DNA of 23,372 nucleotides, from IMG/VR virus record IMGVR_UViG_3300023196_001581, positions 2,086 to 25,457 of that record. One strand, given 5' to 3'. The notes under the pieces are model-generated. The model did no database searches. It was not told the DNA's origin and saw only the letters and a list, made by a program, of their open reading frames with translations. Below, piece by piece: positions 8,406 through 17,813 of the stretch. The position numbers and the translations under genes were made by a program. Origin of the DNA: a virus. The stretch's first letter is position 1; each line of letters starts with the position of its first letter.

Positions 8406-8651
8406 TTATTTCCTAAGTTGTGATACTGGTTTACGTCTACCAAACAAACGCCTAACCTTTAATGCGTTAATGGTGCCAAACGTTTTGTTACGCCAACCTT
8501 GGTGAGCACGTCTAACCTTCTGCATCTTGGCCCGCTTAACACAACGCAAGGTATTTTTCTTTATGATTACATTCCTGCGCCGACCAAAACCACCAAAGAT
8601 GGTGGTAAAGTCGTTACGCATGACTGTCTTTCTAAAGTTAAAGTTTTTCAA
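8406..8651 (-). CDS. highly basic hypothetical protein
   Basis: 81 residues, with many Arg/Lys (for example GRRRNVIIKKNTLR and KVRRLFGRRKP) and almost no acidic residues. The start overlaps the primase stop as ATGA, implying coupled translation. The charge suggests DNA or RNA binding alongside the primase-helicase. I do not recognise a family. Confidence 0.55.
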   Translation of the reverse strand: MKNFNFRKTVMRNDFTTIFGGFGRRRNVIIKKNTLRCVKRAKMQKVRRAHQGWRNKTFGTINALKVRRLFGRRKPVSQLRK

Positions 8652-10948
8652 AATACGCTCTCGTCAAATGATTCAATTGAGTCGATATACTTTTGTGCTT
8701 TTGGTTTAAGACTAACACCAAGATACACACTTACTCTCTCGCCGTTTTGTCTAATCTCTTCAGACTTAACAAACTGCTCTTGCGTTGCAGCTAAAAACCT
8801 ACGCTTAAATGCCTGCTCTGTACCTGGCGCCATGGACTTCTTCAGCGCCCAGTGTTTGTAACATGCAAACACATCCTCCTTGCGTGTTGTAGCTAACGGA
8901 TCAAAATCAAGGGCCGCATCGGCAAAGACTGCAAGTGGGTTACCCAGTTCGCTCATCAGGTCAAGGTACTCTTTGCCTGATACTGGCTGGACAAAATGTC
9001 CTCCCCTACCGATACGGCGCTTGAGCCCTTCCATAGCCCAATTAAAGATACCCCCCAGCTCAGCACGTAACTTAATTGACAGCTCGGTGTCTTCCTTATT
9101 AAAAAATGATTTTGTCATCTTTAATACAATCATACGGCCTGTCAACGCGTTAGAGTTTTCTGTTAGCTGTAACACCTCGTTAGAGTAAATAACAAGGCGA
9201 GTAGGAAGATAGCCATTCCAAGACTCTTTATTCTTTCTATTGACAGTGATAGTATCCCCACCAACAATACGTAGAAGCTGAGAAACCACAGCACTGCGAT
9301 TGCGCTCAGGAGCGCGAGCGTCTGTAAAACTAGCCAAAAGTTTACCAAGCCAAGGTTGAAGTCCGAATGTGTCACATAGTTCTCCTAGTTCGGGTGCCAC
9401 TGTGTTGTGTTGGCCAAGTAGGTCAACAAGCACCTTGTTAATTGTCCCCTTGCCTGACCGGCGTGGGCCAATGATGTTAAAGAATTTCTGTTGCTTAGTA
9501 TCTCCCGATAAAATGTAGCCAAACATTTCTTGTAGTGTATCTATTGACTCCTGATCATCGGGCCATACCGACTGCAAGAACGTATCCCAGGTCGGACAAA
9601 CGGCTCTCTGATCGTACGCAAACGGCAAAGAGTTCTGTGTAAAGAATCCCAGTGAGTGTGGCAAAAGGATAGAATCTTCTAAGTGAAAAATACCATTCTC
9701 AACAGAAATCAATTTAGACGCGGCGGGTTTGGTCTTGGCGTATTCCTCTAACCAAATTGGTGGCTTGGTGTTAGGATGGTTTGCCAAGTGGACAATGGAT
9801 TTAATTGCATCAATCGCGCCTGATACACTGGCAGGGTTTGGGTTAAATGGTGCCAACGCGCCCTGCTTACCTGACTTCTTACACTTGTCTAAAAACGAAT
9901 AAACCCTAGATCGAATGGTTGCCTCCTCCATAATCTCGTAGTGTGTGCCAACGTAGATAAAAAAATCATCTGCGTAATGCACAAGGGAGTAGCCCTCTTC
10001 ACTGGAGTAAAAATTATCTAAAAAAGTACGGGCATGATTCATGGTGCCTGAGTCTAAAATAATCTCGCCCCTTGCTAATGCCTCGGTGCGCTCCTGTTGG
10101 TTCACTTGGAATATCAACGAGCGCAGGGTGGCACCCGAACCCTTGAACGTCCTCCACTTGTTTTCACATGAGTAGTCACCACTGGCAGTGTAACTGGCGC
10201 CTGTTGCCGACCAACGATCCCACGCCTCGCAAGCCTCAACGTCTGCACTAAACTGGTGGTGCAGTATGGCGCCAACTTTAAGCCACTCTGCATAACCCAT
10301 CTCGGGGTCTAGCTTAGCTAATAGCTCCTCCTCTACGCGAGTGATCGACCACTCATCTAATGGTGCCGAGTAGTCTCCAAATGCGTCGCCTGTGTGCCTC
10401 ATAGTGCGCTCAGGAATGACTGAGGTTAAGTCTTGCACCCCTGCCGGCACGTCACCCTTAAGGTGGTGCCCTGTCACTGTAAAAAATCGTGAGTTTGCAT
10501 ACGCCTCAAACCCAATGGCGTGGTCTGCGTGTGAGGCAAATGGGTTAGATCGTGTAAAAATCTTCACGCCTGTACCCGATGGTGATACCTCCATGTAACC
10601 ATCGACCTTATTTGCCAGTTCTAACATAGCCTGATTACTAAACCCCATTATGCTCGAATCATAGCAATCGTCTAGGTCAATCCCTACTAAATTGTCATCG
10701 TGTGAAAACACAAACCCCACACCATCAAATTTTTGGGTGTTGTAGGCCTGCTCTACTGCTAGAAAATCTGTCCATGTCGCTGGGTTGGTAGATGAGGCCG
10801 AACGGCCTGTGACTTGGAGTGGCATCTTGGCCCATCTCTTGTTGTCTCCATCACCGACCTCGACAAACGACCACATCACCCACCTTGGCACCTTACGAAG
10901 CTCTATGGGGATGTTGCCAAGTTGTACTGGTAAGCTAGTTGGTTTCAT
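8648..10948 (-). CDS. primase-helicase (AEP/PrimPol-like N-terminus with D5-like SF3 helicase)
   Basis: 766 residues. The N-terminus has the archaeo-eukaryotic primase-type pattern: FDGVGFVFSHDDNLVGIDLDDC (metal-binding D91 and D93, split around 73-95), SPSGTGVKIF (122-131) and FFTVTGHHL (155-163). The C-terminal half is a D5/P4-type helicase with Walker A GPRRSGKGT (494-502) and the NEVLQL and TGRMIVLKM segments of that superfamily. It would prime and unwind phage DNA. Its ribosome site GAGGAAT lies just before ATG 10948, and phage-type promoter copy 4 is 19 nt upstream. The neighbouring palindromic element 1 makes this a candidate origin region. Confidence 0.9.
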   Translation of the reverse strand: MKPTSLPVQLGNIPIELRKVPRWVMWSFVEVGDGDNKRWAKMPLQVTGRSASSTNPATWTDFLAVEQAYNTQKFDGVGFVFSHDDNLVGIDLDDCYDSSIMGFSNQAMLELANKVDGYMEVSPSGTGVKIFTRSNPFASHADHAIGFEAYANSRFFTVTGHHLKGDVPAGVQDLTSVIPERTMRHTGDAFGDYSAPLDEWSITRVEEELLAKLDPEMGYAEWLKVGAILHHQFSADVEACEAWDRWSATGASYTASGDYSCENKWRTFKGSGATLRSLIFQVNQQERTEALARGEIILDSGTMNHARTFLDNFYSSEEGYSLVHYADDFFIYVGTHYEIMEEATIRSRVYSFLDKCKKSGKQGALAPFNPNPASVSGAIDAIKSIVHLANHPNTKPPIWLEEYAKTKPAASKLISVENGIFHLEDSILLPHSLGFFTQNSLPFAYDQRAVCPTWDTFLQSVWPDDQESIDTLQEMFGYILSGDTKQQKFFNIIGPRRSGKGTINKVLVDLLGQHNTVAPELGELCDTFGLQPWLGKLLASFTDARAPERNRSAVVSQLLRIVGGDTITVNRKNKESWNGYLPTRLVIYSNEVLQLTENSNALTGRMIVLKMTKSFFNKEDTELSIKLRAELGGIFNWAMEGLKRRIGRGGHFVQPVSGKEYLDLMSELGNPLAVFADAALDFDPLATTRKEDVFACYKHWALKKSMAPGTEQAFKRRFLAATQEQFVKSEEIRQNGERVSVYLGVSLKPKAQKYIDSIESFDESVF

Positions 10949-10967
10949 TTATTCCTCTTTTATTGTC

Positions 10968-10981
10968 TATACTAATGCAAA
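10968..10981 (-). promoter_or_regulatory. phage-type promoter motif, copy 4 (primase-helicase)
   Basis: TTTGCATTAGTATA on the minus strand, 19 nt upstream of ATG 10948 and, unlike the leaderless copies, followed by a Shine-Dalgarno site. The adjacent AATCAATGGCTTAC (10981-10994) belongs to a repeated 14-mer also present in both palindromic elements. Confidence 0.7.
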
Positions 10982-11020: not shown

Positions 11021-11040
11021 AAATGAGAATGATTATCATC
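11021..11040. promoter_or_regulatory. Fur-box-like operator (element 1, left)
   Basis: AAATGAGAATGATTATCATC resembles the enterobacterial Fur box GATAATGATAATCATTATC. It lies 12 nt outside the left arm of palindromic element 1, and an inverted partner flanks the right arm (16 of 20 bases match). Confidence 0.5.
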
Positions 11041-11052
11041 TGTTTCTAATAG

Positions 11053-11212
11053 AATCAATAACTTAGACTAATTTCGACGGGGTGACGGGGGTAGCGTACC
11101 CTTTTTACTCTTTTTTAAAATAAAAAAAAATAAAACGTAAGTAGGGGGAAAGAACGTGGAAAACACCCCGCAACCCCCGTCACCCCGTCGAAATTAGTCT
11201 AAGTCCTTGATT
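11053..11212. repeat. palindromic element 1: 40-bp inverted repeat around an 80-bp A/T-rich loop
   Basis: Left arm 11053-11092 and right arm 11173-11212 match at 38 of 40 positions. Each arm carries the tandem GACGGGG-TGACGGGGG. The loop contains a hairpin plus T-tract, a long A-rich run and AACGTAAGTA. Bases 11076-11194 are a 119-bp core shared in direct orientation with 16374-16492. Together with flanking Fur-like sites it forms a nested palindrome of about 225 bp. It could be a replication origin with inverted iterons and an unwinding region, or a regulatory or recombination site. No gene is seen between 10949 and 11321. Confidence 0.85.
11089..11106 (+). terminator. intrinsic terminator-like hairpin in element 1
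   Basis: GGGTA (11089-11093) pairs with TACCC (11097-11101) across a GCG loop and is followed by TTTTT. It would stop plus-strand transcripts entering the element. It is conserved exactly in element 2. Confidence 0.5.
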
Positions 11213-11224
11213 CATGGTGTTCTA

Positions 11225-11244
11225 ATTGATAATGGTTCTCATTT
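11225..11244. promoter_or_regulatory. Fur-box-like operator (element 1, right, inverted)
   Basis: The complement reads AAATGAGAACCATTATCAAT, a weaker Fur-like site in mirror orientation to 11021-11040. It lies just outside the right arm of palindromic element 1. Confidence 0.4.
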
Positions 11245-11321
11245 AAGAATGGCGACATAAACTATATGCCCCAAAAAGTACAAAAACACAAACAATATGA
11301 ACCATTTAAAGTGTTTATCTT

Positions 11322-11519
11322 TCATAATATGACATCATATCCTTGATTTTTTAAGAAGTTATATATCCATTCACGAAATTTGATGCGGTATTCGTTGTCC
11401 TGGGGATCTATTGGGTCCCATATCGCGTCAATGATGTGACTACCCAGCTCGTCATAAAACTCGATGACTTGCAGGTTGCCCTCGCTGTCGTATATCTCAC
11501 TCGGTATGGCCCTTGTCAT
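11322..11519 (-). CDS. hypothetical protein
   Basis: 65 residues, acidic, with aromatic-rich segments (VIEFYDELG, FREWIYNFLKNQG). Not recognised. Last gene of the leftward early operon. The start overlaps the previous stop as ATGA, and palindromic element 1 follows about 110 nt downstream. Confidence 0.6.
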   Translation of the reverse strand: MTRAIPSEIYDSEGNLQVIEFYDELGSHIIDAIWDPIDPQDNEYRIKFREWIYNFLKNQGYDVIL

Positions 11520-11860
11520 TCCTCTTCCTTTATGATTGAGTAAGTGTCACGCACCCTTGGCTCCTCCTCATTCCAGTTGTCAGATGTGCCGTAGTCACCC
11601 CGAATAGCACTCATGCGCTCAGACTTTCGGCACTCAGGCTCAATTGCCCACCACTTCTCGGATGCCTCTAGATACTCAAACCACTCATCGTTGCGCTCGT
11701 ACAGTGGGTGGTTGAGCCCTGCGGTCTCTACTGCGGTGTATTGCCTCTGTGGTACGTGGGCGTGCTTAGCGTAGTCCTTTGTACGCACTACACCCGCTTT
11801 ATTGCGCGCGGTAATGAATCGACTATATGCACTGGCCTGCTCTTCTGTTAAATGAATCAT
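11516..11860 (-). CDS. hypothetical protein
   Basis: 114 residues, charged and rich in Glu, Arg and aromatic residues. Segments such as EEQASAYSRFITARNKAG and HVPQRQYTAVETAGLNHPLY suggest a folded helical protein. No family recognised. It is co-translated with the sigma factor upstream (ATGA overlap), so a role connected to transcription control is possible but unsupported. Confidence 0.65.
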   Translation of the reverse strand: MIHLTEEQASAYSRFITARNKAGVVRTKDYAKHAHVPQRQYTAVETAGLNHPLYERNDEWFEYLEASEKWWAIEPECRKSERMSAIRGDYGTSDNWNEEEPRVRDTYSIIKEEE

Positions 11861-12432
11861 TCTTCTATTTCCTCGTAGTGTTTGTCTTCTGCAATACTAT
11901 CTAAACTAACTGGCTCTTTGTTTATATGACCACGCAGTTGGTGAATCTTTGCCGTTGTGGTATCTAAAATAGTAGCCAGCTCGTGGACTGTTGGCTTACG
12001 CCCTAATACTTGAGATAATGCCCTTTCGTTGTAGTTTAGTTTTTTAATAGCCTCGGCGATATTAACTGGTAGCCTGATAATGTTGCTTGTGTTGTCCAGC
12101 TCCCTGCGCACACCCTTGAGTATAAATGACTTGGCATAGGTAGCAAACTTGGCATTGTTGGTCGGTTTCCAACGCCTAGCCGCGATTAGTAACTGCTCGT
12201 TACCCATCGCTAGTATGTCCTCCATTGGCACCTTGCCGTGTTGCCATGCCGTCATCTTGGTTACTACATGCGAGACAAAACGTAAATTATGTGTGACTAA
12301 TTTATTTAATGCCTGATCGTCACCTTTTTGTATACGCTCTGCCAGTGCATGCTCCTCCAGTGTCGATAACGGCTCTATGCCGTATAGAGATTGTAGGTAG
12401 TCAGTCTTAATGTCTTTTGTGCTACTTGTCAT
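11857..12432 (-). CDS. sigma70-family factor lacking region 4
   Basis: 191 residues. Region 1.2 is near 13-36, region 2.1 at about 40-60 (LVTHNLRFVSHVVTKM), 2.2 at 70-90 (MEDILAMGNEQLLIAARRW) and 2.3-2.4 at 91-124 (KFATYAKSFILKGVRREL, then IIRLPVNIAE). Region 3 covers 125-168 (GRKPTVHELATILDTTT), and the chain stops in 3.2 (PVSLDSIAED..) with no region 4. T4 gp55 is likewise a minimal late sigma without a canonical region 4. It would direct core polymerase to phage promoters, probably the TTTGCATTAGTRTA set (inference). It belongs to the operon transcribed from the sigma70 promoter at 13215-13244. Confidence 0.85.
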   Translation of the reverse strand: MTSSTKDIKTDYLQSLYGIEPLSTLEEHALAERIQKGDDQALNKLVTHNLRFVSHVVTKMTAWQHGKVPMEDILAMGNEQLLIAARRWKPTNNAKFATYAKSFILKGVRRELDNTSNIIRLPVNIAEAIKKLNYNERALSQVLGRKPTVHELATILDTTTAKIHQLRGHINKEPVSLDSIAEDKHYEEIEE

Positions 12433-12577
12433 TTGTGCCTTTCCGAATCATATTAATGCCGTCTTTGCCTATTACCATAAGCAATCCAACTAATAACCAA
12501 ACGGCATAAGTAAAAGTAAATTGATACGATAAACTGTTCCATGCTAATAAAATAATTAACGCCCCCACAATCTTCAA
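12422..12577 (-). CDS. small two-helix membrane protein (TTG start)
   Basis: 51 residues. Two hydrophobic stretches (about 3-14, VGALIILLAW, and 24-36, AVWLLVGLLMVIG) with a polar tail. TTG 12577 is preferred: AGGAGG lies 7 nt upstream and the codon overlaps the stop of the preceding gene as TTGA. The 3' end overlaps the sigma start by 11 nt. Candidate roles include a holin-like or superinfection membrane protein, but no family is recognised. Confidence 0.6.
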   Translation of the reverse strand: MKIVGALIILLAWNSLSYQFTFTYAVWLLVGLLMVIGKDGINMIRKGTNDK

Positions 12578-12753
12578 AATGGTGCCTCCTGTAATAAAAG
12601 TGATGCTACTGCGTATGGATTGGCTTTAGGCTCGCGTGGTAGCGTCTTTAAGGCCATGCCTGCGGTTAGGTAGGGGGTAGCCTCCAGTTTAGATACAAAC
12701 TTCCTGCAAGCTCCTCCAAACTCGTCTATGAGGATGTAACGATACTGGCTCAT
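12574..12753 (-). CDS. small hypothetical protein
   Basis: 59 residues: MSQYRYILIDEFGGACRKF, then LEATPYLTAG and PREPKANPYAVASLLLQ. The layout recalls tiny phage proteins of unknown function. ATG 12753 forms an ATGA overlap with the upstream stop, and its own stop overlaps the TTG of the membrane protein. Confidence 0.6.
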   Translation of the reverse strand: MSQYRYILIDEFGGACRKFVSKLEATPYLTAGMALKTLPREPKANPYAVASLLLQEAPF

Positions 12754-12932
12754 AGAGTGTAGCCATCGGCTTGTATTCCCTTAATTGCGTCATCTAACTC
12801 TTCTTCACTTTGGGTTTCCCAACCCCAGTGACCATAACGCAAAACAAAGTCCAATGCACTTTTTGTATCCACTCCGAGTGTCTTGGCTTCCCAGTTAACT
12901 AGCCTATCAATTTTTTCTTGTTTGTTCATCAT
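12750..12932 (-). CDS. small hypothetical protein
   Basis: 60 residues. The first two codons are both ATG; the second gives the better distance to the GGAGG just upstream. Helical, with a YGHWGWETQSEEELDDAI segment. Not recognised. ATGA overlaps on both sides. Confidence 0.6.
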   Translation of the reverse strand: MMNKQEKIDRLVNWEAKTLGVDTKSALDFVLRYGHWGWETQSEEELDDAIKGIQADGYTL

Positions 12933-13192
12933 GCCTCCAGTGGTTTAACTATTACCGCCTTGATGTGTTGGGTGGTTGTCACTGATTTGACAAACTCTTC
13001 ATTGCTGAGTTTGCGTACCAGTGGCGCGCTGATGTTCTCGCGGTCGTACTCTTGGACCTCGGCAAAGAATGACTCGCCTGAGTAGGTACCAATGCCACGC
13101 GAGATAAGTTCTGCTTTGAGCTTGGACTTGATCTCCTCTAGCTCTTGGATCTGTCTGCTGATGGTACCATATTGGTCAATGATGTTGTTCAT
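12929..13192 (-). CDS. conserved phage protein with coiled-coil start
   Basis: 87 residues. A coiled coil (about 5-30, YGTISRQIQELEEIKSKLKA) is followed by ELISRGIGTYSGESFFAEV and a C-terminal segment ending in HIKAVIVKPLEA. This organisation matches a common phage family (coiled coil, then a GxGxYxGexfxA.V pattern) with no proven function. First gene behind the sigma70 promoter; GGAGAAATT lies upstream of ATG 13192. Confidence 0.7.
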   Translation of the reverse strand: MNNIIDQYGTISRQIQELEEIKSKLKAELISRGIGTYSGESFFAEVQEYDRENISAPLVRKLSNEEFVKSVTTTQHIKAVIVKPLEA

Positions 13193-13214
13193 AATTTCTC
13201 CTGTCTAAAATTAG

Positions 13215-13244
13215 ATTATAGTCTAAGTCGTTACTAATTGTCAA
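13215..13244 (-). promoter_or_regulatory. host sigma70 promoter for the early operon
   Basis: On the minus strand, TTGACA (13244-13239), an 18-nt spacer, then TATAAT (13220-13215): both hexamers are perfect. The -35 lies in the last codons of the region-4-like gene. The -10 sits inside a near-palindrome TTAGAC-TATA-ATCTAA, a plausible operator. It drives 13192 to 11322, including the sigma factor. Confidence 0.85.
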
Positions 13245-13539
13245 ATAATTTTTTTCTCATGGATTTTATTCCCTTTTCTAGGTGGTATCTCCATGTCTTT
13301 TCAGATACCCCAATGTCTTCATGTGTATTGCCCCTCATAAAAGCAATAACCATGCGGTGTTGTTTTGGTTCCAGTCTGCTTACCAATTTCCACAACAAAC
13401 GTTGGTTTATTGTTGGTATTTTGGTGTCTACAAGAAATTCAACGGCATCATCATTGATAAGATCAAGCTCCATGATGTCGGGTAGCTCTTCCCATAATTT
13501 TGGGGATATTGGCTTTAGTCGCGCCTGTTTTCTGTACAT
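13234..13539 (-). CDS. sigma region-4-like HTH protein, paralogue B
   Basis: 101 residues. The C-terminal half (about 53-101) reads RLEPKQHRMVIAFMRGN, then HEDIGVSEKTWRYHLEKG and IKSMRKKL. That is a region-4.2-like helix-turn-helix with a shortened first helix. It is homologous to the protein at 4300-4617, while the N-terminal halves differ. It lies directly upstream of the operon holding the region-4-less sigma, which supports a split-sigma arrangement (inference). Its 3' end contains the -35 of that operon's promoter. The start overlaps the preceding stop as TAATG. Confidence 0.65.
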   Translation of the reverse strand: MYRKQARLKPISPKLWEELPDIMELDLINDDAVEFLVDTKIPTINQRLLWKLVSRLEPKQHRMVIAFMRGNTHEDIGVSEKTWRYHLEKGIKSMRKKLFDN

Positions 13540-13685
13540 TATTTGTCCTTTTTAAGATGAAATTCTAACGCATTTTGCATACACTGTTTAATTGCCGCGT
13601 CAACAAGGGCTCGGATCTCTAATTGATCCCAGCGTGTCTCTTTTAAGTGCTCCACTACCAGTGGGTGTAACTGTTCCCATTTCAT
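13539..13685 (-). CDS. small hypothetical protein
   Basis: 48 residues, helical: MKWEQLHPLVVEHLKETRW, then a Lys-ending tail (EFHLKKDK). GGAGGT lies 5 nt upstream of ATG 13685, and the stop overlaps the ATG of the region-4-like gene. Function unknown. The strong ribosome site and tight packing support it. Confidence 0.6.
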   Translation of the reverse strand: MKWEQLHPLVVEHLKETRWDQLEIRALVDAAIKQCMQNALEFHLKKDK

Positions 13686-13686
13686 A

Positions 13687-13845
13687 TTAACCTCCGTATG
13701 CGTCAATGTAATCGGCCACCGCTTGGGCCTCGGTCTCTTTTTCTGTAAACCATAGTGGCTTGGTGTCTAGCACGTCCTGTGCGTCTTCTAACGTAAACTC
13801 ATAGCTTAGTTTGCCTGCCTCTTTAATAATCTTGTTTAGGTCCAT
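13687..13845 (-). CDS. small hypothetical protein
   Basis: 52 residues: MDLNKIIKEAGKLSYEF, then LEDAQDVLDTKPLWFTEKE and ADYIDAYGG. GGAGG upstream of ATG 13845. Not recognised. It lies one base from the next gene and overlaps the previous one by one base. Confidence 0.55.
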   Translation of the reverse strand: MDLNKIIKEAGKLSYEFTLEDAQDVLDTKPLWFTEKETEAQAVADYIDAYGG

Positions 13846-13916
13846 TATGCCTCCTCGTGTAATCTAATGCGGGCTTGTTCAATGTGATTATACCACCAAT
13901 ATATTGAATCACTCAT
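13845..13916 (-). CDS. possible 23-residue peptide gene
   Basis: MSDSIYWWYNHIEQARIRL and a short EEA end. The start lies inside the 3' end of the upstream gene (8-nt overlap) with a GGAAAG ribosome site, and the stop overlaps the next ATG (TAATG). The position between two genes with exact overlaps supports translation, but the size makes this tentative. Confidence 0.4.
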   Translation of the reverse strand: MSDSIYWWYNHIEQARIRLHEEA

Positions 13917-14049
13917 CTTTCCACTCCTCAAAATCATAGTCAAATATATAAAAGTCTGCGTCTATTGCCTGCTGATACGCGTCGGCAAGTGTTGGCGCGT
14001 CAATGACAAGGGTATCCCCCTTGTCGTCCTTAAAGTACGCTGTAATCAT
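13909..14049 (-). CDS. small acidic hypothetical protein
   Basis: 46 residues: MITAYFKDDKGDTLVIDAP, then LADAYQQAIDADFYIFDYD. Acidic, mixed strand and helix. A strong AAGGAGG site precedes ATG 14049, which overlaps the zinc-ribbon stop as ATGA. Function unknown. Confidence 0.6.
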   Translation of the reverse strand: MITAYFKDDKGDTLVIDAPTLADAYQQAIDADFYIFDYDFEEWKDE

Positions 14050-14192
14050 ACAACCTCCTTGTTTTTACAATTCCAACAGAATAGCACACCAGTGCCGTAC
14101 TTGATGGCACGCCTTTGGGTGCAGTGCTTACACTTGATGCCGTTTTGAATGATTGGGCCCATTGTGTGGGCGCCTGATATGAGTCGTGCCAT
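14046..14192 (-). CDS. small zinc-ribbon protein
   Basis: 48 residues with two CxxC pairs (C21/C24 in KCKHC and C39/C42 in FCWNC) spaced 14 residues apart, a treble-clef or zinc-ribbon knuckle. Basic residues between the knuckles (TQRRAIKYG) suggest nucleic-acid contact. Early position fits a small transcription or host-takeover factor (guess). Confidence 0.65.
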   Translation of the reverse strand: MARLISGAHTMGPIIQNGIKCKHCTQRRAIKYGTGVLFCWNCKNKEVV

Positions 14193-14205
14193 TGTGGCCT
14201 CCTAT

Positions 14206-14601
14206 TTAACTTGCTCGGTAGTAACATTGTACCAGTGAACGTGGCAGGCCGCGCTCGGTGCCATTGTCGTGATATACGCCATCTATGAGGGCCACGGCGT
14301 GTCCGCGCTTGATTACTATCCACTTACCCTTATTGTTGTCACGCGCGAACGTGGCGAGGGTTTGGCGGTTGCCGCGTGGCAATTTGTCCATCTCGGCGGT
14401 TGGCTTGCCAGTGAGCCGTTTAATCACGGCGTCGGTTTGTTTGCGGTACATGCCACGGCGTGGCTTGCGCCCTGCCTCCGCACACATGGTGTGCACCTTA
14501 GGATACTCGACGTTGAACGCTAGGCTTAGGGCCCGAACCACGCAGTCATTGATCTCGGTGTTGATTGTGCGTGGGTTGTTTTTAATGTATTGGAAGTCCA
14601 T
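14206..14601 (-). CDS. papain/C39-like cysteine-peptidase-fold phage protein
   Basis: 131 residues. NDCVVRALSLAF places Cys20 at a helix start, and RGHAVALIDGVYHD supplies His101 and Asp107, the order seen in C39/papain-like folds. Between them are AEAGRKPRRGMYRKQTDAV and a basic linker. Such proteins occur in many phages, with proteolysis or deamidation suspected but unproven. GGAG before ATG 14601 follows double-hairpin leader R1. Confidence 0.65.
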   Translation of the reverse strand: MDFQYIKNNPRTINTEINDCVVRALSLAFNVEYPKVHTMCAEAGRKPRRGMYRKQTDAVIKRLTGKPTAEMDKLPRGNRQTLATFARDNNKGKWIVIKRGHAVALIDGVYHDNGTERGLPRSLVQCYYRAS

Positions 14602-14624
14602 AAAATCTCCTGTGTGTTGTGTGT

Positions 14625-14676
14625 GGTCATCATCAGTGCACGCCTAACGTGCATACACCTCGCGGTGTTTCGACCT
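14625..14676 (-). repeat. double-hairpin leader R1 (52 nt)
   Basis: 50 of 52 bases are identical to R2 at 15034-15085. As minus-strand RNA it forms ACACC-GCGA-GGTGT (a GNRA tetraloop) and GCACG-TTAGG-CGTGC. It covers the last codons of the 14644-14868 gene and ends about 24 nt before the ATG of the 14206-14601 gene. Both differences from R2 fall outside the stems. Probably an mRNA processing, stability or translation-control element. Confidence 0.75.
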
Positions 14677-14868
14677 TATTATACTGCCTGCCCATACCTC
14701 TGCAACGTCAACCTCCTCGAGCATATAGTCGAGGGTGTCACTGCTAAGGTCTTCGAGGACCTCACTGCGCTCCATGATCAGGTTTTGGATCAACTGCTCC
14801 TTGGTCATCTCGCGCCACTGGATCAGCTCACTGCGCAGGATGGTTTGTATTCTCTCTTGACGTGTCAT
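14644..14868 (-). CDS. small helical hypothetical protein
   Basis: 74 residues from ATG 14868 (GAGGAG upstream). Charged helices: MTRQERIQTILRSELIQW, then MERSEVLEDLSSDTLDYMLEE and a basic end (RSKHREVYAR) encoded within hairpin leader R1. Not recognised. The gene starts 4 nt after the upstream gene's stop. Confidence 0.6.
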   Translation of the reverse strand: MTRQERIQTILRSELIQWREMTKEQLIQNLIMERSEVLEDLSSDTLDYMLEEVDVAEVWAGSIIRSKHREVYAR

Positions 14869-14872
14869 GGTG

Positions 14873-15016
14873 TTACTCCTCTTCAAAAACATATTGTAAG
14901 TCTTGGTAGATGCGCTCAATCTCGCGCTGAGTGTCTTGGTCAAGATCATCAGTCCACACTGAGCGAATTAGCTCGCGTGCCTGCTCGATTACTGCCTGTT
15001 TTGCTTTAATATCCAT
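14873..15016 (-). CDS. small helical hypothetical protein
   Basis: 47 residues from ATG 15016, acidic and helical: MDIKAKQAVIEQARELI, then DLDQDTQREIERIYQDL. AAGGAG lies just upstream, placed directly after double-hairpin leader R2. Not recognised. Confidence 0.6.
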   Translation of the reverse strand: MDIKAKQAVIEQARELIRSVWTDDLDQDTQREIERIYQDLQYVFEEE

Positions 15017-15033
15017 ATTAACTCCTTTGTGTT

Positions 15034-15085
15034 GGTCATCATCAGTGCACGCATAACGTGCAGACACCTCGCGGTGTTTCGACCT
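15034..15085 (-). repeat. double-hairpin leader R2 (52 nt)
   Basis: Second copy of the element at 14625-14676. Hairpins: ACACC-GCGA-GGTGT and GCACG-TTATG-CGTGC. It fills the gap between the 15089 stop and the AAGGAG ribosome site of the 14873-15016 gene. A related CTCCTTTGTGTTGGT string recurs at 15350 without the hairpins. Confidence 0.75.
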
Positions 15086-15088
15086 GTA

Positions 15089-15340
15089 TTACTCGTAGCA
15101 GATACCCTCATCTAATGCAACCTGATAGGCATCATCGTGACCCAGTGTTTTGACTAGCTCGTAGTCGTCATTTTCAAACTCGTACACCTCAAGACTAAAC
15201 TGCTTAGTTTTGGAGTTGTATTGAAGGATGTCCTTGTCATCTACCGACCACTCGAGGCAGTCACCTGACTGCTCGGGCAACAATCTAGCAGGCACTACTT
15301 TTTTATCGTCAATCAATTTTAAGATCGTAAAATTAGGCAT
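15089..15340 (-). CDS. hypothetical protein
   Basis: 83 residues, acidic, mixed beta/alpha: MPNFTILKLIDDKKVVPARL, then CLEWSVDDKDILQYNS and HDDAYQVALDEG. Not recognised. GGAGATAACACC precedes ATG 15340. Followed by hairpin leader R2. Confidence 0.6.
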   Translation of the reverse strand: MPNFTILKLIDDKKVVPARLLPEQSGDCLEWSVDDKDILQYNSKTKQFSLEVYEFENDDYELVKTLGHDDAYQVALDEGICYE

Positions 15341-15501
15341 GGTGTTATCTCCTTTGTGTTGGTTAGTAATTCCTCGGTGACACTACAATGCAATGCCACC
15401 TGAGCATTACTATCTATTAGCATACGCACTGTGGATAAGTGCACTGGTTCTGCCAGCTCCCCCTTATTTATCTCGGTTGGGTTTGAGTACTGCGACAACA
15501 T
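15319..15501 (-). CDS. possible first early gene, hypothetical
   Basis: 60 residues, overlapping the next start by 22 nt. No Shine-Dalgarno. TATACT lies 4 nt before the ATG and could be the -10 of a leaderless transcript, but no good -35 is seen. A perfect DnaA box lies inside it. It may be coding or just the edge of the non-coding region. Confidence 0.35.
   Translation of the reverse strand: MLSQYSNPTEINKGELAEPVHLSTVRMLIDSNAQVALHCSVTEELLTNTKEITPCLILRS
15430..15438 (-). promoter_or_regulatory. DnaA box (TTATCCACA)
   Basis: A perfect 9-mer match on the minus strand at the edge of the repeat-rich non-coding region. A single box could occur by chance, but its position is compatible with an origin nearby. 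Confidence 0.45.
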
Positions 15502-15883
15502 GGTTAGTATAACGACCTTTTAAAAACTGCGTACGATTATTTTAATGTCCTACTAAACTGTGTGGGTATTATGTGGGAGCGCGAGTCCACCGAATAATGT
15601 GACATTCACGCCCACACTCAACGTCCTCCCCTCGCGCCCGCATAGCCTTACTGGCTGGGCCTCAAGTCCACCAAGCCACGATCGCACAGTGGTCAATGCA
15701 CCAGTGAGCCAAACTGCCTGCGCGCCTCCTAGGCCCCTTCTCGTGCGTCCTATGCGTCAATAGGTGTTTACCCTAACCTGGCGGTTAGTAAGCACTCACT
15801 TACACTTATGCACCACATTGGTGCGCTGGCCCACGTTCCACATTGTGAGATAGCATTTCACATTATGAAACGCATTACCTTAT

Positions 15884-15905
15884 TGCGAATGAGAATCATT
15901 ATTAT
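15884..15905. promoter_or_regulatory. Fur-box-like operator, direct repeat copy 1
   Basis: TGCGAATGAGAATCATTATT followed by AT; 21 of 22 bases match the copy at 15926. It matches the Fur-box core AATGATAATCATTATC at 14 of 16 positions. Confidence 0.55.
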
Positions 15906-15925
15906 CTGCACTGCTCGGGCCTAGA

Positions 15926-15947
15926 TGCGAATGAGAATCATTATCAT
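15926..15947. promoter_or_regulatory. Fur-box-like operator, direct repeat copy 2
   Basis: TGCGAATGAGAATCATTATC followed by AT; it matches the Fur core AATGATAATCATTATC at 15 of 16 positions. It is 42 nt from copy 1 (start to start), four helical turns, so both lie on the same DNA face. Confidence 0.6.
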
Positions 15948-16300
15948 GTAGCCCTGTTGCGCACTGAGCGGATCGGGGCGCGGAACCATTCCACATTATG
16001 AGATGCCATACCACAATGCGGTACAGGCTATGTTAGTGCGCACTAGGTGAGTGGCTCACTGCCTGAGCTACCGCACTGCCCCAGTGCCTACTAACTTAGT
16101 GCACCAATGTGGTGCGCCCCAGTGTGTACTTACTTACTTAGTGCACCAAAACAGTGCATAGGGGGCTTTTCTATAAGGCAATGCACCAATTTGGGTCCTG
16201 TCGGAGGGTCTGAGGCAGAGGCTCCAACCAAACCTGAGTTTTTGTATTTTCTTCCAGAAACACTCTTTTGCAGGGAAAACCCTAACTTCTAAATTTTTTT

Positions 16301-16329
16301 TTGAAAAATTCTAAAAACTAAATGATAAT
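16301..16329 (+). promoter_or_regulatory. sigma70-type promoter overlapped by a Fur box
   Basis: TTGAAA (16301-16306), a 17-nt spacer, then GATAAT (16324-16329). The -10 lies inside the palindrome 16320-16340. Transcription would start near 16336 and meet the terminator-like hairpin of element 2 about 50 nt later. Confidence 0.55.
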
Positions 16330-16340
16330 CATTATCATTT
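16320..16340. promoter_or_regulatory. Fur-box-like palindrome (best copy)
   Basis: 21-bp palindrome, perfect around the central base 16330. Bases 16321-16336 read AATGATAATCATTATC, identical to 16 consecutive positions of the 19-bp Fur consensus. Overlap with a -10 element is the usual layout for Fur repression. Confidence 0.65.
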
Positions 16341-16373
16341 GCGTTACCTAAAATCAATGACTTACAGAGGTTT

Positions 16374-16492
16374 GACGGGGTGACGGGGGTAGCGTACCCT
16401 TTTTACTATTTTTTATAAAATTTTTTAAAAAATAACGTAAGTACTGGGGGAGGGTGAAATATGGTCCGCAACCCCCGTCACCCCGTCGAAAT
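16374..16492. repeat. palindromic element 2 (119-bp core, direct copy of element 1)
   Basis: Same length as the core of element 1, with identical outer blocks (GACGGGGTGACGGGGG.. and ..CCCCCGTCACCCCGTC), the same hairpin plus T-tract, and AACGTAAGTA; only the A/T-rich loop and a G-rich spacer differ. It is preceded by AATCAATGACTTAC (16352-16365) and the Fur-like palindrome, in the same order as element 1. It lies 5,298 bp from element 1 in direct orientation. Confidence 0.85.
16387..16404 (+). terminator. intrinsic terminator-like hairpin in element 2
   Basis: GGGTA (16387-16391) with TACCC (16395-16399), then TTTTT. It would stop transcripts from the 16301 promoter before the late genes, giving either insulation or attenuation. 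Confidence 0.5.
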
Positions 16493-16532: not shown

Positions 16533-16546
16533 TTTGCATTAGTGTT
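16533..16546 (+). promoter_or_regulatory. phage-type promoter motif, copy 5
   Basis: TTTGCATTAGTGTT. TGCATTAGT ends 6 nt before ATG 16550, with no Shine-Dalgarno between, so the mRNA is predicted to be leaderless. It heads the rightward packaging/portal operon. Confidence 0.75.
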
Positions 16547-16549
16547 AGT

Positions 16550-16858
16550 ATGAGCAAATACGTTTACCAAATACAAGGGGCACTGGAAAATCCCCAAGGC
16601 CAGTTTATTGGCCTTAGAGTATTGGTATGCAATATAGACTTCTTGGACATGGTTGATGTACCTGTAGAGATACTAGACGCCGAGACTGTTAAGTATATGC
16701 AATTTAGACTTTCCATTACCGCAGAGCCAGTTAACATTGCTGCACTGCCCGTGGAAATGCAAAACAAGATACGCACTCCGTTAGGGAGATGGCTGGACCG
16801 ATGGGTTCTTGAAAACTTTTATGGCGATAACCGCAAACACAAAGATACTAACTCTTGA
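16550..16858 (+). CDS. hypothetical protein, first gene of the rightward late operon
   Basis: 102 residues from ATG 16550, chosen because the promoter motif lies 6 nt upstream; an ATG at 16454 is open but lies inside palindromic element 2. Beta-rich start (MSKYVYQIQGALENPQGQF), hydrophobic middle and a WLDRWVLENFYGDNRK end. Not recognised. It overlaps the Hint gene by 38 nt. Confidence 0.65.
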   Translation: MSKYVYQIQGALENPQGQFIGLRVLVCNIDFLDMVDVPVEILDAETVKYMQFRLSITAEPVNIAALPVEMQNKIRTPLGRWLDRWVLENFYGDNRKHKDTNS

Positions 16859-17813
16859 TTATTGGAAACCAGCGTCTCAGCTGGAAGTAGGTGACTGGGT
16901 ATTTGACCGTAACGGTAATCCTGTCCAGATCAAACTAACTCAACAATATCATAGCGCTGAGTGCTATGAGGTAATGTTTAATGATTTTCTCACCATCACT
17001 GGTGATTTTAAACTGACACTTCCAGTAGAAACTATCAAATACCGTAATAGGCTACACACGTATAAGGGCAAATTGACATTTCGCCGCCCACTAAAACTGT
17101 TTACCGCCGACCAAATTACACAAACCTCACTCTTAGATTCGCGTAACCGCAAAACTTTGTCGGTTCCTACCGCACATCCTTTACAACTCCCCCATAAAGA
17201 TTTACCCATACCCCCATTTCTATTTGGCTTTTGGTATTTTTCACGTAGATCCACTGGAAGATTGGCTGCGGCCCCTGGAACTGCTGAGTATGTACACCAA
17301 AAGTTTAAAGACCATGGGTATAAAGTCAGAACGCATGCCTTAATTGACACGGGAGAGCGTGATTTTTCTACAGAGCCTAGCATTACGCGACAGCTTATAC
17401 CCAATACCCCAAAAATTATACCAAATAATTACTTACTTGCTTCTGCTGAACAACGCCAAGACTTACTCTCTGGGATTGTTTGCGCAAAACCTAGGCAATA
17501 CAACAAAAGACAAGACACTTTTAGGGTAACATCTAAAAATTATGACACAATGCGCAGGGTTCAGTTGCTTGCTGAGTCCCTTGGGTCCCGAGCAAAGCTC
17601 TACCACGACCCACATAAGCAAGACTATACCGTTTTTTTTAAATCTAGGTTACCTTTAATCCCGGGTCAAGCATCACCGCCGGTAAAAGTTCACTATGGCC
17701 GCAGGTATATCACAGAAGTCACACCAATTGCCCAACAGTTGTGTGTTCATTTTGAAACCACTGGCGAAGATAACACTATTTTAGCAGGAGAGGGCTTCAT
17801 ACCATGTCTTTAA
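16821..17813 (+). CDS. free-standing intein-like (Hint) protein with degenerate LAGLIDADG endonuclease
   Basis: 330 residues from ATG 16821. The N-terminus follows intein block A and the adjacent strand region (ITANTKILT, then LEVGDWVFDRNG). The splicing Cys1 position is Ala, directly after the initiator Met. Block B is TITGDFKLTLP with the usual His replaced. Two LAGLIDADG-like helices, FLFGFWYF (133-140) and DLLSGIVCAK (214-223), lack their acidic catalytic residues or retain them poorly. Block F, LCVHFETTGEDN through ILAGEGF, is followed by IPCL in place of the His-Asn/Cys junction. Protein splicing is therefore not expected. The last codons overlap the TerL start by 10 nt in another frame. 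Confidence 0.75.
   Translation: MAITANTKILTLDYWKPASQLEVGDWVFDRNGNPVQIKLTQQYHSAECYEVMFNDFLTITGDFKLTLPVETIKYRNRLHTYKGKLTFRRPLKLFTADQITQTSLLDSRNRKTLSVPTAHPLQLPHKDLPIPPFLFGFWYFSRRSTGRLAAAPGTAEYVHQKFKDHGYKVRTHALIDTGERDFSTEPSITRQLIPNTPKIIPNNYLLASAEQRQDLLSGIVCAKPRQYNKRQDTFRVTSKNYDTMRRVQLLAESLGSRAKLYHDPHKQDYTVFFKSRLPLIPGQASPPVKVHYGRRYITEVTPIAQQLCVHFETTGEDNTILAGEGFIPCL

What the first reader, a model, noticed from the sequence alone, without database searches (positions are those of the whole stretch)
11076..16492. Twin 119-bp palindromic elements in direct orientation, 5.3 kb apart
The cores 11076-11194 and 16374-16492 have the same length, the same GACGGGG tandem in inverted arms, the same hairpin/T-tract and the same AACGTAAGTA, yet different A/T-rich loops. 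Conservation of length and arms but not loop sequence implies selection on structure. They bracket the whole early region. Options are two origins, an insulator pair, or sites for recombination that would release the early cassette.
Basis: partly seen in the sequence, partly recalled or inferred. Interest (0 to 1): 0.8.

Follow-up and report, generated by a model that had tools for sequence, protein, structure and literature searches.

The report
Twin iteron origins of a lake phage
The two look-alike palindromes are very probably a matched pair of docking sites, most likely DNA-replication origins, for the phage's own primase-helicase; in dozens of related lake phages both copies change their short repeated 'address' together, in step with the part of that protein predicted to read it.

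Summary
Elements at 11076-11194 and 16374-16492 share inverted G-rich arms around an AT-rich centre, and this is a family trait. All 81 terminase loci with enough DNA carry element 2 upstream of terminase (79 by detector, two by eye). 78 of 97 primase loci carry element 1 upstream of the primase-helicase gene. Each arm holds two or three tandem 9-mers (period-9 autocorrelation 0.69; other periods 0.21-0.29). The 9-mer differs between phages (29 forms in 54) but is shared by both elements of one genome (k-mer overlap 0.52 within, 0.05 between; 0 of 10,000 permutations). In the primase-helicase only the C-terminal winged helix tracks the 9-mer, most strongly its wing (partial r 0.45; rest of the protein ≤0.12; control genes ≤0.25). 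It folds like RFX domains, and the protein is a P4-family primase. IHF-like sites flank the elements. Best reading: paired origins (AT-rich unwinding region between inverted iterons) loaded by the primase-helicase. Related designs are known (SaPI, P4, SPP1); the twin layout with co-evolving specificity is a new variant. The hairpin/T-tract and the direct orientation are not conserved, and no tyrosine or serine recombinase was found. Replication itself is untested.

The parts
11076..11194 (.). Element 1 (E1): inverted 9-mer iteron arrays around an AT-rich centre, upstream of the primase-helicase gene
   Evidence: such an element upstream of primase in 78 of 97 primase loci, window included
11075..11092 (+). 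E1 left iterons: CGACGGGGT (11075-11083) and GACGGGGGT (11084-11092)
   Evidence: sequence; period 9 established across relatives
11173..11190 (-). E1 right iterons, inverted: GACGGGGGT (11173-11181) and CGACGGGGT (11182-11190)
   Evidence: sequence
11101..11136 (.). E1 AT-rich centre, candidate DNA-unwinding element
   Evidence: sequence; in complete relative G002 the two centres are among the most AT-rich 0.07% and 0.33% of 50-bp windows
11053..11065 (+). IHF-consensus site AATCAATAACTTA, left of E1
   Evidence: enriched in flanks of relatives
11200..11212 (-). IHF-consensus site AATCAAGGACTTA, right of E1
11024..11038 (+). Fur 7-1-7-like box left of E1
11227..11241 (+). Fur-like box (1 mismatch) right of E1
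10966..10981 (-). Promoter-like motif TTTGCATTAGTATAGA of the primase operon
   Evidence: 7 in the window, all in the direction of the adjacent genes, 0.33 expected
8648..10948 (-). P4-family primase-helicase (PriCT_2, D5_N, DUF5906, C-terminal winged helix aa ~662-766): proposed iteron-binding initiator
   Evidence: winged helix covaries with iterons
8651..8965 (-). Winged-helix domain (aa 662-766); iteron-tracking residues 712, 731, 733, 740
   Evidence: AF2 pLDDT 89; top PDB folds are RFX DNA-binding domains
16374..16492 (.). Element 2 (E2): second iteron palindrome, 1.3 kb upstream of terminase
   Evidence: same place in relatives
16373..16390 (+). E2 left iterons: TGACGGGGT (16373-16381), GACGGGGGT (16382-16390)
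   Evidence: sequence
16471..16488 (-). E2 right iterons, inverted
   Evidence: sequence; identical to E1 right arm (D14)
16399..16434 (.). E2 AT-rich centre
   Evidence: sequence
16352..16364 (+). IHF-consensus site AATCAATGACTTA, left of E2
   Evidence: such a site in this flank in 32 of 58 distinct E2s vs 0.4% in shuffles
16323..16337 (+). Fur box TGATAATCATTATCA, left of E2
16533..16548 (+). Promoter-like motif TTTGCATTAGTGTTAG of the rightward (packaging) operon

Best explanation
E1 and E2 are a matched pair of initiator-binding sites, most likely two replication origins (or one origin plus a required or late-acting second site). The phage's P4-family primase-helicase binds the 9-mer iterons with its C-terminal winged-helix domain. 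The two iteron arrays of one element point at each other, so two helicase rings could load on either side, melt the AT-rich centre and start forks both ways, with IHF bending the flanks. Shown here: both elements, their conservation and positions in relatives, the 9-bp period, sharing of the 9-mer between the two copies of one genome, co-variation with the winged helix (wing strongest), IHF-consensus enrichment, family of the protein and predicted fold of its domain. Inferred: physical binding, melting, helicase loading, and origin function of either copy.
For: Two copies and no third in the complete circular relative G002; in complete G003 and G004 E1 by detector and a degenerate E2 by eye. 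E2 in all 81 terminase loci with enough DNA. Period 9 only. Arms shared within a genome 0.52 vs 0.05 between, 0.065 even at 80-90% primase identity, 0 of 10,000 permutations; interior 0.287 vs 0.166. Partial Mantel over the whole primase: aa 731-750 r 0.448 and 721-740 r 0.408, 0 of 2,000 permutations; the six best windows (0.156-0.448) all lie in aa 661-750, every other window is at most 0.118. Terminase and the gene after E2 reach only 0.25. With E2 arms instead, aa 731-750 again ranks first among primase windows (0.285, 22 genomes). Winged helix pLDDT 89, top PDB folds RFX domains; P4-family primase above the NCBIfam cut-off; similarity to PDB 7ola over both halves. IHF sites. Precedents: SaPI Rep C-terminus recognises iterons and the Cch2 C-terminal domain binds its putative origin (PMC7581432); P4 alpha winged helix binds origin repeats (PMC4234260).
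Against: No replication data. Cumulative GC skew does not turn at the elements. Both elements sit next to promoter-like motifs, so a transcriptional role is not excluded. Residue-by-base co-variation is not resolved (effective n 25.6; only 2 of the top 20 pairs fall at aa 690 or later), so a recognition code is only suggested. No such element was detected around the primases of isolates with ~28-30% identical primases (9NA, Carvaje, Isfahan, Henu15) nor in the stretches read of ctpbd312. The AF2 model of the full-length protein is poor (pLDDT 59).
Confidence: 0.77

Rival explanations
1. The elements are operators: the primase-helicase (through its winged helix) or another factor binds them to control the two flanking promoters, the primase operon and the packaging operon, and replication starts elsewhere.
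For: E1 and E2 lie ~95 and ~41 bp from promoter-like motifs; Fur-like and other operator-like palindromes crowd the neighbouring control region.
Against: Does not explain the AT-rich centre between inverted iteron arrays at both places, nor why a primase-helicase related to self-loading initiators is the covarying protein. Autoregulation could coexist with origin function.
Confidence: 0.13
2. A sub-case of the best explanation: one element is the working origin and the other is a fork barrier or second-stage site that switches replication to concatemers, as proposed for SPP1 oriR.
For: SPP1 has two distant, similarly built sites (direct repeats plus AT-rich DUE) bound by one initiator, and fork stalling at gp38 bound to oriR is the proposed switch (PMC6316719). 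E2 lies at the entry of the packaging operon in the relatives.
Against: Nothing here distinguishes the copies; both keep the full architecture in most genomes.
Confidence: 0.25
3. DNA or RNA hairpins (terminators, insulators) selected for folding.
For: Long palindromes; GGGTAGCGTACCCTTTTT looks like a terminator in the window copies.
Against: That hairpin is in 3 of 115 elements; arm sequence tracks a DNA-binding wing; left and right iterons often differ by transitions (CATAGTAGT vs CACAGTAGT).
Confidence: 0.04
4. Site-specific recombination sites that release the early cassette.
For: Two direct copies bracket the cassette in the window.
Against: No tyrosine or serine recombinase in five related genomes of 58-66 kb; interiors flipped in many relatives; the cassette is present in every locus with both elements.
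Confidence: 0.02

Closest known systems
SaPI replicon (SaPI5 Rep / PriRep1 and its origin)
   Same: Primase-helicase with a C-terminal DNA-binding domain that reads iterons. [quoted passage not shown] SaPI5 Rep has primase and helicase domains. The window primase aligns to PDB 7ola over both halves including the winged-helix region (from memory 7ola is SaPI5 PriRep1).
   Different: The SaPI origin lies directly downstream of rep; here there are two copies, one upstream of the primase and one upstream of terminase. Gene content is that of a stand-alone phage, not a satellite.
Phage P4 alpha protein with ori and crr
   Same: Alpha's winged helix binds the origin repeats, then unwinds and primes (PMC4234260). 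From memory, P4 needs two cis sites, ori and crr, bound by the same protein. NCBIfam places the window protein in the P4 family.
   Different: P4 alpha has a TOPRIM-type primase (PMC4234260); here the N-terminal part matches that of 7ola. Both sites here share one inverted layout around an AT-rich centre.
Phage SPP1 oriL / oriR
   Same: Two origins ~13 kb apart, each direct repeats plus AT-rich DUE, one initiator (PMC6316719).
   Different: In SPP1 the origin binder (gp38) and the DnaB-family helicase (gp40) are separate proteins.
RFX winged-helix DNA-binding domains
   Same: Best PDB fold matches of the winged helix (8zjr, 1dp7). From memory RFX1 reads DNA mainly with its wing, the part that covaries most here.
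   Different: 9-15% identity; eukaryotic transcription factors.

Membership tests
P4-family phage/plasmid primase (TIGR01613) | Score above curated cut-off | tested here: met
   150.7 bits vs 108.7
Iteron-type replication origin | Tandem short direct repeats | tested here: met
   period-9 autocorrelation 0.687
Iteron-type replication origin | AT-rich unwinding region next to the iterons | tested here: met
   among the top 0.07% and 0.33% AT-rich windows of G002
Iteron-type replication origin | Cognate initiator binds the iterons | tested here: inconclusive
   co-variation only; no binding assay
Iteron-type replication origin | Replication starts there | not testable with these tools
   GC skew uninformative
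SaPI-type replicon | Initiator is a helicase with a C-terminal DNA-binding domain | tested here: met
SaPI-type replicon | Origin directly downstream of rep | tested here: not met
   E1 lies upstream of the primase, E2 5.3 kb further
P4 ori/crr system | Two cis sites read by one protein, both needed | tested here: inconclusive
   two sites with shared iterons; need for both untested
Site-specific recombination pair | Cognate recombinase in the genome | tested here: not met
   no PF00589 or PF00239 match in five relatives' genomes; other recombinase types not searched

The most novel reading that the evidence does not exclude
The phage clade diversifies its origin specificity: 29 iteron forms in 54 genomes, each kept alike at two distant sites and in step with an RFX-like winged helix. 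This would be an orthogonality arms race that keeps co-infecting relatives or satellites from using each other's initiator, and a natural protein-DNA recognition code readable from metagenomes (for example residue 731 Leu with T at base 3 in 20 of 20 genomes).
Probability: 0.4. Interest if true: 0.78.

Novelty: new variant of a known kind. Interest (0 to 1): 0.62.

Why it matters
It gives an uncultivated, widespread freshwater phage group a concrete replication system: a candidate initiator, its binding sites and a testable specificity. The many natural pairs of iteron and winged helix are a ready data set for how an RFX-type wing chooses its DNA, and for why a phage keeps two matched sites. 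It also shows that rapid, concerted change of a palindrome's arms can mark a co-evolving protein-DNA pair rather than a folded structure.

Tried and rejected
Exact 16-mer scan of IMG/VR: 18 hits, of which three contigs are true relatives; the rest are about what chance would give. GC skew as origin evidence: does not turn at the elements. Same element in isolates with distant primases: not detected. Residue-to-base code by mutual information: not resolved at effective n 25.6. Sequence search of the winged helix alone against PDB: only chance hits; the fold search was needed. Rfam: two tRNAs only, no RNA family at the elements. Of the twelve 'E2-less' terminase loci, ten start too close to terminase for the test to apply, L053 has the element shifted to ~1.9 kb and L072 a degenerate one. 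The four key residues were chosen on the E1 data, so their identity gap is partly circular; the window scan over the whole protein and the E2-arm test are less so. The 81 terminase loci and 97 primase loci include several records of near-identical phages (58 distinct E2 sequences; 57 primases under 97% identity).
Full report
WHERE IT LIES. The window is bases 2086-25457 of a 25,457-bp IMG/VR virus record. Its terminase has 414 relatives among IMG/VR contigs and is 55% identical to that of an environmental phage from Manatee Spring, USA, and ~42% to Caulobacter phages. Three bacterial-genome contigs with an 85-86% identical terminase all come from one bin labelled 'uncultured beta proteobacterium', so a betaproteobacterial host is a guess. 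Genes left of 11 kb and the early cassette (11.3-15.5 kb) run leftward; the packaging and structural genes run right from 16.5 kb.

OBSERVATION. Both elements are present as described. A detector for this shape (inverted arms, 85-150 bp, AT-rich centre) found 22 in 395 kb of relatives and none in the same DNA shuffled in 60-bp blocks.

RELATIVES. Upstream of the primase-helicase, 78 of 97 primase loci (window included) carry an element. Of those without, L219 and L135 show one by eye, and in several others the stretch searched looks like coding sequence. Upstream of terminase, 79 of the 81 loci with enough DNA carry element 2 by detector and the other two by inspection; most start 1.39-1.52 kb from the terminase start. 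The complete circular relative G002 (65,804 bp) has two elements and no third; in G003 and G004 E1 was detected and a degenerate E2 seen by eye.

THE ARMS ARE ITERONS. Across 57 genomes (primases under 97% identical) the arms repeat with period 9 (identity 0.687; periods 5-8 and 10-14 give 0.21-0.29). The 9-mers follow a loose consensus WGHNNNRGT and come in 29 majority forms in 54 genomes. In 25 genomes with both elements, arm k-mer overlap is 0.52 within a genome and 0.05 between genomes, 0.065 even between genomes with 80-90% identical primases; no permutation of 10,000 reached it. The interiors are far less genome-specific (0.287 vs 0.166). The two elements were detected independently of each other, so the sharing is not built in.

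WHAT READS THEM. I slid 20-residue windows along the primase-helicase and asked which track arm similarity once the rest of the protein is accounted for. aa 731-750 (partial r 0.448) and 721-740 (0.408) lead. The next four (0.156-0.207) lie in aa 661-730, in or next to the same C-terminal domain; every other window is at or below 0.118, and the median over all windows is 0.00. The control genes, terminase and the gene after E2, reach 0.25 at most. Using E2 arms instead (22 genomes), aa 731-750 is again first among primase windows at 0.285, followed closely by aa 671-690 at 0.257. The best columns are 731, 740, 712 and 733. In the AF2 model of this domain (pLDDT 89) they fall in the wing and at the start of the second helix of the helix-turn-helix. 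The best PDB fold matches are RFX DNA-binding domains, which, from memory, read DNA mainly with the wing. 28 of 44 members match Pfam Pox_D5. A residue-to-base code is only suggestive (731 Leu with T at base 3 in 20 of 20).

THE PROTEIN. It is a P4-family primase (TIGR01613 above cut-off) with PriCT_2, D5_N and DUF5906. It aligns over both halves, including the winged helix, to PDB 7ola, which I recall as SaPI5 PriRep1. [quoted passage not shown] P4 alpha binds its origin repeats with a winged helix (PMC4234260).

SURROUNDINGS. Four of the five IHF-consensus matches in the window are at or near the elements. In relatives the left flank of E2 has one in 32 of 58 distinct cases, against 0.4% in shuffled flanks. 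Fur-like boxes flank E1 on both sides and E2 on the left.

MECHANISM. Two opposed iteron arrays would seat two helicase assemblies facing each other across an AT-rich stretch, with IHF bending. That is the plan of a bidirectional origin. Why two? Either both fire, or the second is an auxiliary site (P4 crr, from memory) or a late switch, as proposed for SPP1 oriR (PMC6316719). The data here do not choose. Control of the flanking operons by the same protein is possible in addition.

NOVELTY. Iteron origins, primase-helicase initiators and twin phage origins are each known. What I did not find described in the library searched is this architecture in such phages, nor co-evolution of origin and wing across dozens of specificities. 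Hence a new variant of a known kind.

Noticed in passing
window 15540-16370; same region in 55 relatives: A ~1-kb non-coding control region packed with operator-like palindromes that resemble host regulator sites. NtrC-like GCACCANNNTGGTGC: 114 hits in 45 of 55 control regions and none in 626 kb of the other DNA; window 15810-15824 and 16101-16115. Could mean the phage reads host nitrogen status; the binding protein is untested.
   Followed up: partly
window 15890-15904, 15932-15946, 16323-16337, 11024-11038, 11227-11241: Fur 7-1-7-like boxes: 5 in the window with up to one mismatch, 0.11 expected; 22 hits in 16 of 55 control regions vs 5 elsewhere.
   Followed up: partly
control regions of relatives, e.g. 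L026, L028, L030: Sigma54-promoter-like TGGCACRNNNNTTGCW (14 vs 0 elsewhere) and palindromes TTAGTNAGYRCTNACTAA (23 vs 0), TTYCACANTRTGRAA (35 vs 20) and TGTTGCNNNGCAACA (12 vs 0).
   Followed up: partly
window 1062, 2767, 4619, 10966 (-); 16533, 19269, 22913 (+): Promoter-like motif TTTGCATTAGTNTA, 7 copies all in the direction of the adjacent genes, 0.33 expected; the early cassette encodes a sigma factor (11857-12432) that might read it.
   Followed up: partly
window 16809-17813: Free-standing protein just before terminase that matches an internal (intein-like) part of terminase families; possibly a detached Hint domain.
   Followed up: no
L135, G004 (L072), L077, L089: Extra copies of the genome's own iteron outside the palindrome, reminiscent of plasmid control iterons.
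   Followed up: no
window 14624-14676 and 15033-15085: A 53-bp repeat, 96% identical, in the early cassette (D6).
   Followed up: no
L229, L230, L231: Three different phage contigs of this group sit in one betaproteobacterial MAG bin; probably mis-binned phages, but a host clue.
   Followed up: no
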